From Manis javanica (taxonomy: Eukaryota; Chordata; Mammalia; Pholidota; Manidae): a stretch of 64,000 nucleotides of DNA. This document shows, in pieces, positions 3,001 through 56,794 of the stretch (the first letter of the stretch is position 1; the number at the start of each line of letters is the position of its first letter). The stretch covers positions 118,496,991-118,560,990 of the forward strand of contig NC_133166.1 of NCBI RefSeq assembly GCF_040802235.1. The letters run 5' to 3'. A model generated the notes under the pieces. That model ran no database searches and was not told the DNA's origin. It saw nothing but the letters and a program-made list of their open reading frames with translations. Position numbers and translations under genes: made by a program.

Positions 3001-6000
3001 CAGGTCCAGCCTGGGTGCAGGGTAGTCAGGACCACAGATTAGAGCTAAAGCCTGGAATGTCAGACATGAACACAGACAGCTGAACTAGAATGTGAAATGG
3101 GCTTCTCAAACTATGTCACTCAGGGAGCTGGAGCATGGGGTGGTCCCATGCTTCTGCTTTACATATTGGGGCCCCGCTGAGGATTTTACCTCTAGCTAAG
3201 ATGTGTCTGAAAACCAGAGGTCCAGAGCACAAACACAGCTTGAGGCCAGGAGTACAAACCGAGTCTGTCTCCCATTTGGCTGAGAGCCCAGCAGGGAGCC
3301 TCATGTCTGGACCCCTTAACATGCCACTCTGGGTCTCGCTAAGTGGACAAGACACTTCTCACATCACTGCCTTTATTACTAGATACTACGGTTTTCAGAA
3401 AACTCCCATCTGCAGACACTAAAAATAGAGAATGATCTAGGACCAAAACAGCCCCATTTTTGGCCTAGTTACATGTCTGATAGGCTGCCCATTAATAAAT
3501 GCCTGGGTTACATACAGGCTGCTTGGTGTTTGGTTCAGCTCCTCTGGGTAGTTAAACTGTACACTGACCCTCATGCGGATCCAATGGCATCTACCTCGGT
3601 GCTTCTCAACTCTACAGGAGAACAGGACGTACAGGGGACACTTCACCCTAATACAACCTTTCTGGCCTCCAAGAGTCAACACAATAGGGCAGATATTATG
3701 GTCATAATAGCATTTTTCCACCATTCAAGGGGATGGGGCTCCCTTCCATAACAGTTCCATAATAGAGGGCGTGAGTTCTGCCTTCCCACCCCACCAAACA
3801 GGACAGATCCTCTCTTCTGGCTTTCCTGTCAGTTAATGTTGCCTGGAATGGGATAAACTTCACTCCCACATCCAGTTCGTCAGCAGGCCTTGTTAATACT
3901 GCCTCTAAAACATATCCTAAATCTATTGACTTCATTTCCAGTGCTTCCCATCCCCCTGTGTGGTCCAGTCCCAATCTGCATTATTGTTCCAACCTCCTCA
4001 CTGGTCTCCCTGCAACTGTACCTAGCCACTACACTTCACTCCCCCCACCTCCAACTAGTGTGAGCCTTTTAAAACACAAAGCAGATCATGCCATATCCTT
4101 TGAAAGACTTCCAGTGGCTTCCCATCCCATGGAAAAAAACCAAACTCCTTACTGTGGCCTTACCAGGGCTTTCTAAGGTCCGACATGATTTGACCATCCC
4201 TAGCTTTCTGACTTTATCAGCTACTCTCCCCTGTTGCTTACTATTCCCGGGCACACTGGACTTCTTTCCGTCCCTTGAACATCCTCAGTTAGGTGGTGTT
4301 CCCTCTGCTTTAAATGCTCTTCCCCTGAATTTTTGCATTGCTAACTCCTTCTCATCATTTGAGTCTCAGTTCAGATGTCAGCCTCTCAGGCCATATCTGC
4401 CCATCCTAACCAAATGCTGCCTCCCTCATTTTCTGTCATATTTTCCTGTTTTTAATCTGTAGTTATCTTGAGCTCTGTTTACAAATTTCTCACCAGCTTC
4501 CTCTCCTTAGATTATAAGCTCCTTGAGGGTAGGAACTTTGTTTTGCTTACCTATGTATCTTCAGCACCTAGAACACTGCATGGCACATAGTAGGTTCTCA
4601 ATAATTTGTTGAATACATCAGCTAATACAGAAATACTGTTTCATTTAGCAGAAGTGCCATGCACAGAATAAACTCTCAATAAACAGCCTGTCAGAACAGT
4701 GGGTGGACATGTGAGAGGATGAGCCAGCATTCTGCTTTGGGGTAGAGCTCCTCCTGTGCCCTGTGGCCATCTGGTTGCCAGAACTAATGGGGGTAAGAAT
4801 AAACTGAGCCATCAGTGAGGCAGCAGAGCCTTACTGTCATGCCTGTGTGCCCACACCAGGGGTTCAGGCCGACTGGCTGACTTCCTGGCCCCAGCCCGTC
4901 TCTTCAACAGTTAGGCTTATGAAATAACCACCGCCTAACTGAGGAAAAAAACCTGGCTGGAGACTTCAGATCACTGAGTTGTTCCTGCCATTCTTTCCAC
5001 AAATATTTGCCAAACTTTGCTTAGATTTCAAGCGATTTTATAAAGCTCATGTTGAAGTCAAGAAAAAAGATTTTGATGGAGAAGATCAGGGGCTACATGT
5101 GGAGGGATACTGATGTGCATAGGGGTAAAATGGTCCATGGAGTCCTTGAAGACTGATGTCAGATGGGAGAAAAGAAGGGAAGAAGGTGTCTTTGGAGGAA
5201 CATGAAGAGCCCTGAGGACCTGCAGACACTTGTGCACGTGCCTCACGTGGACATAGGCCAGTGAGCTACTTGCCAGATCTCAGCCTGGATCCTCATGTGC
5301 CAGGTACTGTAGGTAAAGATGGGCCCACTGGAGCCTTCCAATAGCATCGGCATGCTGACAGCTCAGAGCAGGACTAAACTCCTGAGCAGGGCAAAGTCAA
5401 GGTCACAGGGGGAGGGGATGGGTGACTAGTCTGTGGCTACTGATCTGTGGTTGCTTTTCTTCATAGCTTGGGAAACAGAAGAAAAAGTATATGCCGTACA
5501 ACCACCAGCATAAATACTTCTTCCTGAGTGAGTGTCCTCATCCAGCACAGGGGACTGCTTTGGGTGGGATGGTGAAGGGATGTGGGGAGGAAGTATTCTC
5601 CACAGGGTTATGGTATTTCAAGTAAAGGCTGGAGGAGGTACCCAGTAACCCCGCAGGTTACTCCCTGTGTGGGAGCAGTCAACCATCTCAACAGAGTCAA
5701 GTCTGTGTCAGGCTACCATTGAGTCATAGGTCATTTGTGTGGAGGCACACCAGTTCCTCCAGTCCGCTCCTGGCCTCCACGAGGACTGAACAGTTGGGGA
5801 GCAGGGGTGGGGCAGGGGCATCTGGATTAAGCCTTAAACCTCACCTTATACCTTGTCAAAGAGATGTGAGCTGAGGTGACCCGGTGGGCGCAGTCCAACC
5901 TCCAGGGGACAAAGGTAGACATAGCCATGGGAGGACAGGACTGCAGAAGCGGGGGGAAGGACTGTTGGAGCTGAGGAGGAAACATTAAGGTGGTTGTCTT

Positions 6001-13835: not shown

Positions 13836-14978
13836 TTATTTTCCCCTTCTGAACTTCCCCGCTGCCCCAGTCTTCGCCTTCTTCTTAGCAGATCCCTTAG
13901 GTTCTGGCACCTTGCGCTTAGCTGAAGAGAGTGAGCCGGTCACCTTAAAGAAATCATCCAGGCGGCCCTGGGTGCTGCCCTGGCGGCTCTTGCTCAGCCG
14001 CTTGACCCCACTACGGATTCGCTCCTCAGAGAACTGCTTTTCACCACACATGAACTTGACAAGCTCTTCCTCATTCGGTTCACTCCATTTCAGCTCCACA
14101 GACTCCGGGTCAAGCACCTCGGGCTCCAGGAAGAGATGCTGGGCCTCCCTGTGGAGCCAATTTTCCGGCACAGGGTACTTGTTGGGGTCGAGCTGACGCA
14201 CAATCTCCTCAATGCTCTTGTGCTTCCGGATGAGGTCCACAGCCCGCTTGGGCCCAATACCCCGAATGCTCTCACAGTAGTCACTGCCCAGCAGGATGCA
14301 CAGATCTACAAACTGCTCCTGGTTCAGGCCGAGCTCCTGCAGAATCCGGCTCAGGTGGAATTCCTGGATGGGCAGCTTCTTGGCCTCACTGGCAGTCAGG
14401 TGCCGCATTAATACGGGGCTGCCAAAGGTCAGACAATCCATGTCCTCTGTGGCTGCGGCGTAGACTTTGCCAGCCTTCACCAGGGCGGCACAGCTGGCCT
14501 CTGCCTCACTGGGTGCATCGAGGTATGGGATGCCCATGAGGTTCAGTAGGTGCTTGCACTCATCGTTGTGCTGCTTGGTGACCTTCACCAGCCGTTTAGT
14601 AAACTTTTCCACCTCCTCCTCGGCCCCAGCAGCCTGAGCCTGCTGCAGCTGCTTCTCCGCCTCAGCCCGCCGCTCACTGCGTTTGGCCAGCTCACCTGAC
14701 TTGAGCTGTGGTGGCTTGCCATCAAAAACATAGACGGGCTTGATGCCATTCTCCATCATACGGATGGTACGGTAGAACATGCCCATCAGGTGGCTGGTGG
14801 TCTCACCCTCCTCATTCTGCAGCACATCCCCGCCCTGACGAACAGCAATCAGGAACTGATAGATGCTCATGGAGGCATCAATGGCCACCTTGCGGCCGAA
14901 GTAGCTCTTGATGTCATTCTCCCGAATGGCACTGGGGGCCACATCAGCTATCAGTTTAGCCAGGCCTTGAATTCCCAT
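13836..14978 (-). CDS. FEN1: FEN1, flap structure-specific endonuclease 1 (complete)
   Basis: Structure-specific 5' flap endonuclease and 5'-3' exonuclease that removes Okazaki-fragment flaps and acts in long-patch base excision repair in nucleus and mitochondria. The 380-codon frame is uninterrupted, which is the full vertebrate length. The XPG N domain starts at residue 1 ([10 protein letters not shown]). Metal-binding acidic residues are all present: D34, D86, E158, E160, D179, D181 and D233. The helix-hairpin-helix region is GIGPKRA (about 240-246). The PCNA-binding PIP box QGRLDDFF is at 337-344, followed by a lysine-rich nuclear localisation tail. A 3' splice site lies just upstream (TTTTTTAG ending at 15000), so the coding exon carries only 21 bases of 5' UTR and the rest comes from an upstream non-coding exon. 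Confidence 0.98.
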
Positions 14979-15632
14979 AGCAATACAGAGGAGGGACAGC
15001 TAAAAAAGAAAGGCAGGTAAAACAAGGAGGAACTTAAAGAATGCCAAAGGAGCAAGGGTTATAACTGGTGAGGTCTCATCAACTTCATGCCTTAAGTTGA
15101 ACAAATTAAGCACAATAAAAAGGACACCCAATTCTGCACTGCTGAGCTAAAGCAATAAACAAGACACAGTCTCCAGTCTCAAGAAAATTACAGTCTAGCA
15201 AGGGTGTCTACTTGATCAATTCTAAGGTTTCCTGATCATCAGGACTAAATTGGTGCTAAGAGGAATAAGACACAGTAATGGATGTCCTCGAGGACGGACA
15301 AGGCAGCAACAGAGCTAGCATGCAATAGGAGCTGCAGCAGATGTCTGCTTCAAGGACCATCCAAGTCCAGAGCACAGCACCTGGCTCAGCTCAAGGAGTC
15401 CAGGGATCTTAATGGTAGAGCTAGGTCCTCAATGAAAACAAATACTGGCTCAACAAAGACGAAATCAGGTACAAAAACAACCATAATACACAACTGAGTG
15501 TGTAAAGTGGTAAAACGAACATGTGTATCTACCTTATTGCCAAATTGTTAACAACACATTCACTACTCCTTTGTACCTTCATACCAGTCATTGAACAGCC
15601 CCAGCTAATCCCTCCAGCTCACCTCCTCTAAG

Positions 15633-21365: not shown

Positions 21366-21371
21366 TTTATT
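21366..21371 (-). terminator. MYRF: MYRF poly(A) signal
   Basis: TTTATT on +, so AATAAA on minus, inside an AT-rich stretch (21355-21395) that contrasts with the GC-rich 3' UTR. Confidence 0.65.
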
Positions 21372-23278
21372 TATATAAGTATATTTACTTCAGAAGAAAA
21401 GGACAGTTCCGGGGAAGCAAGGAGGCCTGGGGCTGCCTCCCTCTGTCCACTCCAGTCAGAGTTGGTACACGATAAATATGAGTCAGCGCTCAGGTACAGG
21501 AACTGGGAGTTAACTGGGAGGGAGGGGCACTCTCCACATGTAGGCTTTTATGGGGGATATAACAGGCAGGGGGACTTGTGCATTGAGAGACCCTATGCAC
21601 AGCTTGAAGCTTGGGGGAGATTAGCCCAGCGGCTACAGGAATAAATGCCAAAGGGGAGAGGAAGGGAGGGATAGCTGCTGGAGCCCGGGTAGGGAATGGA
21701 GCCAAGACACCCACTCACCAGCGCCAGTGAAGCAGCCGTCAGCCTCCAGCAGGTGGCCCACTCCCCTGAAGCCCTTTTATCTTAACTGGGCTAAGGCAAC
21801 TTTGGTCCAAGGTTGACCCACCCCTTGAGCAGCTTGGAGCCCCAGCCTGGCCCCAATCCTTGCACTGAGGACCCCCTCCCCAGGCATGGAAACAGCCAGC
21901 TGCTAACCAGATTGGGGCTCTGCTGTGTCCAGATGGGCTCCAGGGAACAGTGGAGGGTCACTTCCAGTTAGGACTGAGGAAGCCTACAGTCCAAGAACAC
22001 GCACTCTCACCCAGAATCCTATTATAACCGGTAGGGCTCCGCAGTTTTAAGGCATTTAGGGAGGGCACCAGCAGCGGGGGGAGGGAGAACACAGTCGTCC
22101 TAAGGAACGAAGGAAGGCTCTGCCCCCTGTCTGCTGTGGGGAGCCATGTAATTCCTATGTCAGAATGGGGCGGGGGTGGGGGGAGCCACAACTGGGGAGG
22201 GGATGGGAGGCGAGGTATTCCTGCTATCCCCCGATTCCCCTCGTGTTTCCCTATCCTGAGGATAAGTGCTTTGAGATCCCTGGCAAGAGGGGAGCCCACA
22301 GTTCATAGGCTTCCTCTAGGTTCGCCTCCCCCGCAGAAAGACCTCCCACTCAAAGCTGAGAATGGGAGGTAGGAGACAGGCATGGCCTGGTTCCCAAAGA
22401 GGTGGCAGAACATGACAGGGCAAAGATGGCAGTTCTCATTCCCATTTCTGAACCCATGCAGATGGGGCCAAGTGTCTTCCACACTCCTTCCACAAGCCTG
22501 GGTGTGGCCTCGGAATGCTCCAGGCACCCTCTAAGAAAGGATTATATTGGCACTTGAGATAAGACTTCTTCCCTAACCCAAGCCCACCACTCTGCTCCTG
22601 GGAGGAGTAAGCAGAGGTGGGGCCTGCTGCTGAGCATGGGTCTCCCCAGCTTGGCTGTCCAAGCCCAGTACAGGAGCCCTTGATTTGGGGAGACAAGGTC
22701 ACCAGCCAACAAGAGTGGAGGGAGAGGCCAGAGTTTTGGTGGTCAGAATTGGGTGAATGTTTCCAGGCTCCCTGGGGTGAATTAGAGCCAGGGTCCTGTC
22801 TTGGCCTGTCCCCCAAGGGCTCTGGTCTGCTCTGGGCCTTCCATCTCCATCCTTCCAGCCTTCTGCCCTGGCTTAAGTGCATTTTAGTAATTTCATAACA
22901 GCAAACACTATTTGCATCCCCCCACAACCCAGACTGGCCTACTGCTTTGCAGGGATTCCTGCTCCTCTGCTCAGAGAGAATGATCGGTGACTGACACTGC
23001 TGCGGGCTCCAGAAACTCTCAGGCCATGGGGCTGCAACACGTTCCGGGGGGCTCACAGGGGACTTCCCTTCTGGGATACTCCAGGTTCAAGGGTCCAAGG
23101 CTTGCCTGGCCCACAGGCCCCTACTGGTTCAGCCAGGCATTAAGTGTACATAAGGCATGTGGTCAGTCTCTCCAGCCCATCCAGGGCTGGCTTCAGCTGC
23201 CCTGGGAGCTCTTGGGAACCAAGTTCCCCCAGGGAAAAGCGACCTCCTGGGCCACACTTAAAGCTTAGAAGTCCAAGT

Positions 23279-23777
23279 CCAGTGTAACAGTCAAACCCCA
23301 AAAAGTCCACCACCTAGCCACCTGCCAGGGAGCAGCTTCGAGGGTGAGGGATGTCTGCTCTTCACCAAGGCACAGGTCCAGCCAAATCCTTTAAGGCTGG
23401 ATCCAAGCCCCTGGCTGATCTCAGGCAGGCACGTCCTCTCCAAAAGAGGGGTGGCTCCCAGTCTCAAAAGAGGCACGGAGGGCAGGCTCTGGACAAAGTC
23501 AGGCTTCCCCTTGCCTTCAGGGCACTTGAAGCCAGCCCTCCAACCACCATATCTGGGCATCTGTGAATGGTCCTGTCCTGGCCCCAGGAGGTCTCTCTGG
23601 CTCCCTCTGTGGTAAGTGAGGGCTGACCAGCAGGAACAGCAACTCCAGTGTAAGGACTTCCAGTGTCACCAGTCACGGGGAGGGCCAAGCCCAGCCCAGT
23701 GTCGCCGAGGGAATACCAGCAAACGGCAGAGAGCTGGCGGGCGGCAGGCTCCAGTGTAACACCATTGCATCCAGTGT
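23279..23777 (-). promoter_or_regulatory. MYRF: Cluster of miR-199a/b-5p seed sites in MYRF 3' UTR
   Basis: On the transcript the heptamer ACACTGG occurs six times: + positions 23279-23285, 23645-23651, 23660-23666, 23696-23702, 23751-23757 and 23771-23777. Five are 8-mers (ACACTGGA); the one at 23696 is a 7-mer. The seed of miR-199a-5p is CCAGUGU. MYRF (formerly C11orf9) has been described as a miR-199a-5p target in oligodendrocyte differentiation. Confidence 0.75.
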
Positions 23778-23835
23778 GGAAGGGGCACCTGGGGAGTTCC
23801 GGGCCCTGGTGTGGTGCTGCCTTGGAGAAGGCAGC

Positions 23836-56794
<32,959 letters not shown>

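What the first reader, a model, noticed from the sequence alone, without database searches (positions are those of the whole stretch)
23279..23777. Six miR-199a/b-5p seed matches packed after the MYRF stop codon
The transcript contains ACACTGG six times in 500 bases, five of them within 133 bases; five are full 8-mers. A given 8-mer is expected about once in 65 kb. Neighbour distances of 15, 20, 36 and 55 bases include the range in which microRNA sites act together. A link between miR-199a-5p and MYRF in oligodendrocytes has been described, but such density suggests a strong, possibly cooperative switch on myelin-gene activation. The motif could also have spread by small duplications, since 'ctccagtgtaa' is shared by two sites.
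Basis: partly seen in the sequence, partly recalled or inferred. Interest (0 to 1): 0.8.

Follow-up and report, generated by a model that had tools for sequence, protein, structure and literature searches.

The report
MicroRNA-199 site cluster in MYRF mRNA
The tail of the mRNA for the myelin master gene MYRF carries a real, far-from-chance cluster of six matches to the small RNA miR-199-5p, which most likely damps MYRF; the pairing was already predicted in 2010, so the density of sites is the only fresh part.

Summary
On the minus strand, six ACACTGG lie 59, 79, 134, 170, 185 and 551 nt after the MYRF stop codon; five are ACACTGGA. ACACTGG is the most over-represented 7-mer in the ~2.5-kb 3' UTR (6 seen, 0.25 expected, P 2.5e-7). 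Of 13,285 7-mers on the + strand, its complement CCAGTGT is the only non-homopolymer with five copies within 140 nt. Of 85 recalled miRNA families it has 6 sites; the other 84 have at most 2. The sites share the bases opposite miR-199-5p nt 2-8 plus A opposite nt 1 in 5 of 6; flanks show no significant similarity. That favours microRNA targeting over duplication. The miR-199a-5p/MYRF link, with three conserved human 8-mers, was predicted in 2010 (PMC2864763), and reviews cite rat inhibitor data. Cooperativity is untested: two of five neighbour distances fit 13-35 nt, one is borderline, and the RNA is GC-rich and not specially accessible. Verdict: a genuine, known target with unusually dense sites.

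The parts
23836..23838 (-). MYRF stop codon (TGA); last coding exon begins at + 23916
   Evidence: MYRF identity from Pfam MYRF_ICA at 32845-33096 (-), E 2.2e-20
23771..23777 (-). miR-199-5p site 1 (UTR nt 59), 8-mer ACACTGGA (A at 23770)
23751..23757 (-). miR-199-5p site 2 (UTR nt 79), 8-mer
23696..23702 (-). miR-199-5p site 3 (UTR nt 134), 7mer-m8 (G at t1)
23660..23666 (-). miR-199-5p site 4 (UTR nt 170), 8-mer; overlaps a miR-145 7mer-A1 (ACTGGAA, 23658-23664)
23645..23651 (-). miR-199-5p site 5 (UTR nt 185), 8-mer
23279..23285 (-). miR-199-5p site 6 (UTR nt 551), 8-mer; best local AU context (0.53)
21962..21969 (-). miR-145-5p 8-mer AACTGGAA (UTR nt 1867); seed recalled
21366..21371 (-). 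first AATAAA on the minus strand after the stop; taken as the MYRF poly(A) signal (UTR nt 2465, inferred; further AATAAA at UTR 3108 and 3929)

Best explanation
A cluster of genuine miR-199a/b-5p target sites at the start of the MYRF 3' UTR of a mammal, most likely placental. AGO loaded with miR-199-5p pairs by its seed to up to six sites and lowers MYRF mRNA stability and translation. With five 8-mers, repression should rise steeply with miR-199-5p level and be near-additive, with possible extra gain from the two close pairs (20 and 15 nt). Shown here: the sites, their position, their excess over chance, and a pattern that fits miRNA recognition. Inferred: AGO occupancy, repression, and the cells in which it acts.
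For: Most over-represented 7-mer in the UTR, P 2.5e-7; densest non-homopolymer 7-mer within 140 nt in the 64-kb window; 6 sites against at most 2 for the other 84 of 85 recalled miRNA families. The invariant block is exactly the nt 2-8 complement, with A at t1 in 5 of 6 (binomial P 0.002-0.003 against base or G-to-A frequency), although miRNA nt 1 is C, so pairing does not explain the A. miR-199a-5p sequence found in print (listing). No AATAAA lies before UTR nt 2465 and no ATTAAA in the UTR; the earliest weaker variant searched is at 1288, so use of any signal searched would keep all six sites. Human 3' UTR has three conserved miR-199a-5p 8-mers and two miR-145 8-mers by TargetScan (PMC2864763, passages); Myrf is listed under miR-199a-5p targets in a retina study (PMC5429617, passage); a review reports that miR-199a-5p antagomir reversed the loss of MRF in a lidocaine model, whose cited title names the rat (PMC11135050, passages).
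Against: No ortholog alignment could be made, so conservation of these six sites is untested here. A at t1 is 6 of 16 for ACACTGG elsewhere in the window; against that, 5 of 6 is only suggestive (one-sided Fisher about 0.07, my arithmetic). Flanking AU content is low (0.33-0.43 for the five clustered sites) and predicted 8-nt accessibility lies at the 10th to 69th percentile of the UTR, which predicts weaker sites. No AGO or reporter data for this UTR were seen; the rat paper (Zhang 2021) is not held and the antagomir effect may be indirect.
Confidence: 0.85

Rival explanations
1. The word multiplied by short local copying (microduplication) and has no selected function.
For: Three sites share TTACACTGGA, and T at t9 would not pair with miRNA nt 9 (U). 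UTR sites 185 and 551 share 13 of 14 nt, sites 79 and 551 share 12 of 12, sites 79 and 185 share CTCCAGTGTAA.
Against: Ungapped flank identity over 50 nt: none of 15 pairs below P 0.12. Gapped, seeds masked, pairs with non-overlapping flanks: none of 13, 13, 12 and 9 pairs at half-flanks 7, 12, 20 and 35 nt below P 0.05 (best 0.074); the closest pairs, 59/79 and 170/185, were too near for that test. No tandem array there; spacings are irregular and the best-matching pairs are 366 and 472 nt apart.
Confidence: 0.1
2. The repeated word is a binding site for an RNA-binding protein or a DNA-level element, not a miRNA site.
For: A six-fold word, and TTACACTGGA shared by three sites, do not by themselves prove a miRNA.
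Against: The invariant block ends exactly at the seed-match borders and extends only by t1 A in 5 of 6; the 239 nt holding five of the sites fold no better than shuffles (z 0.76; 154 of 200 fold as well).
Confidence: 0.07
3. The main role is outside the oligodendrocyte: the sites keep MYRF off in mesenchymal, mural and fibroblast cells, which make miR-199a/214 and miR-145, rather than timing myelination inside the oligodendrocyte lineage. (A variant of the best explanation, not exclusive of it.)
For: The UTR also holds a miR-145 8-mer (expected 0.05, P 0.05), and the miR-145 7mer-A1 word occurs twice, once in that 8-mer and once inside a miR-199 site (expected 0.24, P 0.02). That these miRNAs are mesenchymal or mural, and that MYRF acts in mesothelium, is recalled, from no call.
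Against: miR-214 sites (2) are no more than chance (expected 1.1, P 0.30). In human ES-derived cells miR-199a-5p is detected and falls about 8.6-fold from early to mid progenitor, then rises about 1.7-fold at the last stage (PMC2864763), which fits a timer. No paper testing the exclusion idea was seen in the listings.
Confidence: 0.3

Closest known systems
miR-199a-5p / C11orf9 (MYRF) prediction, Letzen et al. 2010 (PMC2864763; passages seen)
   Same: Same miRNA, same gene, 3' UTR; three conserved 8-mers and co-targeting by miR-145 proposed
   Different: Human, three conserved 8-mers reported; here six sites (five 8-mers) in an unnamed mammal, and one miR-145 8-mer rather than two
miR-145-5p repression of Myrf (Kornfeld et al. 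2021; seen only as cited in PMC10937391 and PMC11135050; original not held)
   Same: Reported direct repression of the same transcript; one miR-145 8-mer is present here
   Different: Other miRNA; reported as validated in primary OPCs, unlike the sites here
Multi-site targets of one miRNA such as HMGA2 and let-7 (recalled)
   Same: Many sites for one miRNA in one 3' UTR
   Different: There the sites are spread over kilobases (recalled); here five lie within 133 nt

Membership tests
Canonical miR-199-5p target | Perfect seed match (nt 2-8), preferably with A at t1, in the 3' UTR of a transcript | tested here: met
   Six 7mer-m8, five of them 8-mers, on the transcribed strand after the stop codon
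Canonical miR-199-5p target | More sites than base composition predicts | tested here: met
   6 against 0.25 expected, P 2.5e-7; shuffles
Canonical miR-199-5p target | Sites conserved across mammals | tested here: inconclusive
   No ortholog reachable (searches gave 0 matches; the genome search did not complete in six tries); three conserved 8-mers reported for human
Canonical miR-199-5p target | AGO occupancy and derepression on miRNA loss | not testable with these tools
   Needs CLIP and reporter data
Cooperative miRNA site cluster | Neighbouring sites about 13-35 nt apart (Saetrom range as cited in PMC2374997) or 8-39 nt (outer limits cited in PMC9875415) | tested here: inconclusive
   Start-to-start distances 20, 55, 36, 15 and 366: two of five within 13-35, three of five within 8-39. 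The papers may measure distance differently; as gaps between 7-mers the values are 13, 48, 29, 8 and 359
Cooperative miRNA site cluster | More-than-additive repression by paired sites | not testable with these tools
   Needs single and combined seed mutants

The most novel reading that the evidence does not exclude
The 5' end of the MYRF 3' UTR is a dense landing pad that makes MYRF mRNA hypersensitive to miR-199-5p, with miR-145 sharing one of the sites. It would act as a cell-identity barrier that shuts MYRF off wherever mesenchymal miRNAs are present, and site number would have grown by independent gains in some mammals beyond the three sites reported as conserved in human.
Probability: 0.25. 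Interest if true: 0.5.

Novelty: already known. Interest (0 to 1): 0.33.

Why it matters
MYRF is required for CNS myelination, and reviews report that inhibiting miR-199a-5p restores it in a spinal-cord neurotoxicity model. A cluster of this density names an exact 500-nt element to mutate, which would tell whether miR-199-5p acts directly on MYRF and whether close sites cooperate on a natural target.

Tried and rejected
Duplication origin: a first gapped flank alignment gave P 0.002 for sites 59/134, 0.022 for 59/170 and 0.035 for 79/185. The 59/134 flanks overlapped each other and neighbouring seeds were unmasked in all. Redone with all six seeds masked and overlapping pairs left out, nothing passed 0.05. 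Structured element: no excess folding of the 239 nt that hold five sites, no Rfam match at gathering score in the window. Read-through protein: a 123-codon open frame follows the stop, but the sites are not all in one frame (steps of 20 and 55), so coding does not explain them. miR-214 co-targeting: not above chance. Relatives: a degenerate pattern for [10 protein letters not shown] gave 0 matches in viral contigs and in genome contigs, as expected of collections of viruses and prokaryotes; the plasmid collection gave none for the UTR start. The window's own genome could not be searched: six tries, all unanswered.

Full report
What is there. The window carries MYRF on the minus strand. Of nine translated fragments scanned with Pfam, four matched a family: MYRF ICA domain at 32845-33096 (E 2.2e-20), NDT80/PhoG DNA-binding at 37416-37688 (E 9.9e-6, 26.4 bits, just under the cut-off of 27), FEN1-type XPG domains at 13839-14999, and DDE_1 at 27439-27714. 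The last MYRF exon begins at + 23916 and ends [26 protein letters not shown] with the stop at 23836-23838. FEN1 lies downstream on the same strand, its coding frame ending near 13836 and starting at 14978. Its 380-residue protein aligns end to end with flap endonuclease 1 of PDB entry 8yjh with 11 differences by my count. The call does not name that chain's species; I take it for human from recall, which would make this a non-human, most likely placental, mammal. The species was not determined.

The six sites. ACACTGG occurs at UTR positions 59, 79, 134, 170, 185 and 551; five are followed by A. The first AATAAA is at UTR 2465, beside AGTAAA at 2447 and TATAAA at 2461, and I take that as the end (inferred; later AATAAA are at 3108 and 3929). 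Weaker variants searched occur no earlier than 1288. All six sites lie before any signal searched.

Chance. The largest ACACTGG count in 2000 shuffles of the UTR was two. A Markov-1 model expects 0.25; six gives P 2.5e-7, the most extreme of the 7-mers present in the UTR. Of 13,285 7-mers seen on the + strand of the window, three reach five copies in 140 nt: two homopolymers and this one. Counter-evidence on rarity: in 32% of whole-UTR shuffles some 7-mer reaches six copies, and about one UTR with six or more sites is expected by chance over an assumed 200 families x 19,000 UTRs of this kind; five in 133 nt is expected about 0.001 times on the same assumption. So it is the packing that is unusual.

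Why miRNA sites. The column table for the six sites is invariant at exactly the seven bases opposite miR-199-5p nt 2-8. The next base is A in five of six; the other columns from 8 nt upstream to 9 nt downstream of the 7-mer agree in at most four of six. Because miRNA nt 1 is C, that A is not a pairing effect; an A opposite nt 1 is favoured by AGO (established knowledge). Against base composition the A has P 0.002-0.003; against ACACTGG elsewhere in the window (6 of 16 with A) it is only suggestive, about 0.07 one-sided by my arithmetic. Of 85 recalled families, miR-199-5p has six 7mer-m8 sites, miR-214 two, fifteen have one and 68 none. The mature miR-199a-5p sequence is held by 54 papers (listing only).

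Duplication. Ungapped flank identity over 50 nt gave no pair of 15 below P 0.12. With seeds masked and gaps allowed, no testable pair passed P 0.05, but the two closest pairs, 59/79 and 170/185, were too near for that test. Short matches of 13 of 14 and 12 of 12 nt that include the seed exist, so copies of a dozen bases cannot be ruled out; the matching sites are 366 and 472 nt apart and no tandem array lies at the sites.

Strength and cooperativity. For strength: 8-mers, early in the UTR, more than 15 nt from the stop, close pairs. Against: AU content of 60 flanking nt is 0.33-0.43 for the cluster and 0.53 for the sixth site; predicted accessibility is at the 31st, 69th, 10th, 62nd, 28th and 49th percentile. 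Spacing: 13-35 nt (Saetrom, as cited in PMC2374997) or 16-30 nt (PMC2374997 itself; passages), and outer limits of 8-39 nt that PMC9875415 cites and questions (passages). Start to start, the 20-nt pair fits all three, the 15-nt pair two, the 36-nt pair only the widest, and 55 and 366 nt none. A miRNA bound at site 185 would reach back over site 170 if its 3' half paired, so joint occupancy would need mostly seed pairing (inference).

Known before. Letzen et al. 2010 (PMC2864763; passages) report, from TargetScan, three conserved miR-199a-5p 8-mers and two miR-145 8-mers in human C11orf9 (MYRF) and propose co-regulation; miR-199a-5p fell about 8.6-fold between early and mid progenitors and rose about 1.7-fold at the last stage; they say additional validation is necessary. 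PMC5429617 lists Myrf under miR-199a-5p targets in retina (passage). PMC11135050 reports that miR-199a-5p antagomir reversed the loss of MRF in a lidocaine model (passages), and PMC13411285 says the same of its inhibition (passage); the cited original, Zhang 2021, is not held. miR-145-5p and miR-615-5p are reported to target MYRF directly (passages of papers citing the originals). I saw no report of a six-site cluster or of cooperativity at this UTR in the listings or in the passages opened; most subscription papers are not in that library, and TargetScan was not available.

Verdict. The target relation is known; the density is a detail, possibly specific to some species, that makes a direct test of cooperativity easy. 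Confidence in genuine miR-199-5p targeting is 0.85; in more-than-additive cooperation about 0.3.

Noticed in passing
27439-27714 (+): Fragment matching Pfam DDE_1 transposase (E 1.3e-5, 25.3 bits, cut-off 22), between mapped MYRF exons and antisense to them: presumably an intronic relic of a pogo/Tigger-like DNA transposon (type recalled).
   Followed up: partly
23278-23292 (-): Three seed matches overlap in 15 nt: miR-132/212 8-mer (UTR 544), miR-194 8-mer (546) and miR-199-5p 8-mer (551); seeds recalled. Expected about 0.02 each in the UTR for the first two.
   Followed up: no
23464-23835 (-): A 123-codon stop-free frame follows the MYRF stop codon in frame; probably chance in GC-rich sequence, not tested for read-through.
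   Followed up: no
21962-21969 (-): miR-145-5p 8-mer in the distal UTR, plus a miR-145 7mer-A1 embedded in miR-199 site 4; Letzen 2010 reports two miR-145 8-mers in human.
   Followed up: partly
literature, PMC11135050: This review's table credits Letzen 2010 with miR-214 acting on MRF, while the passages of Letzen 2010 that I saw pair miR-214 with MOBP.
   Followed up: no
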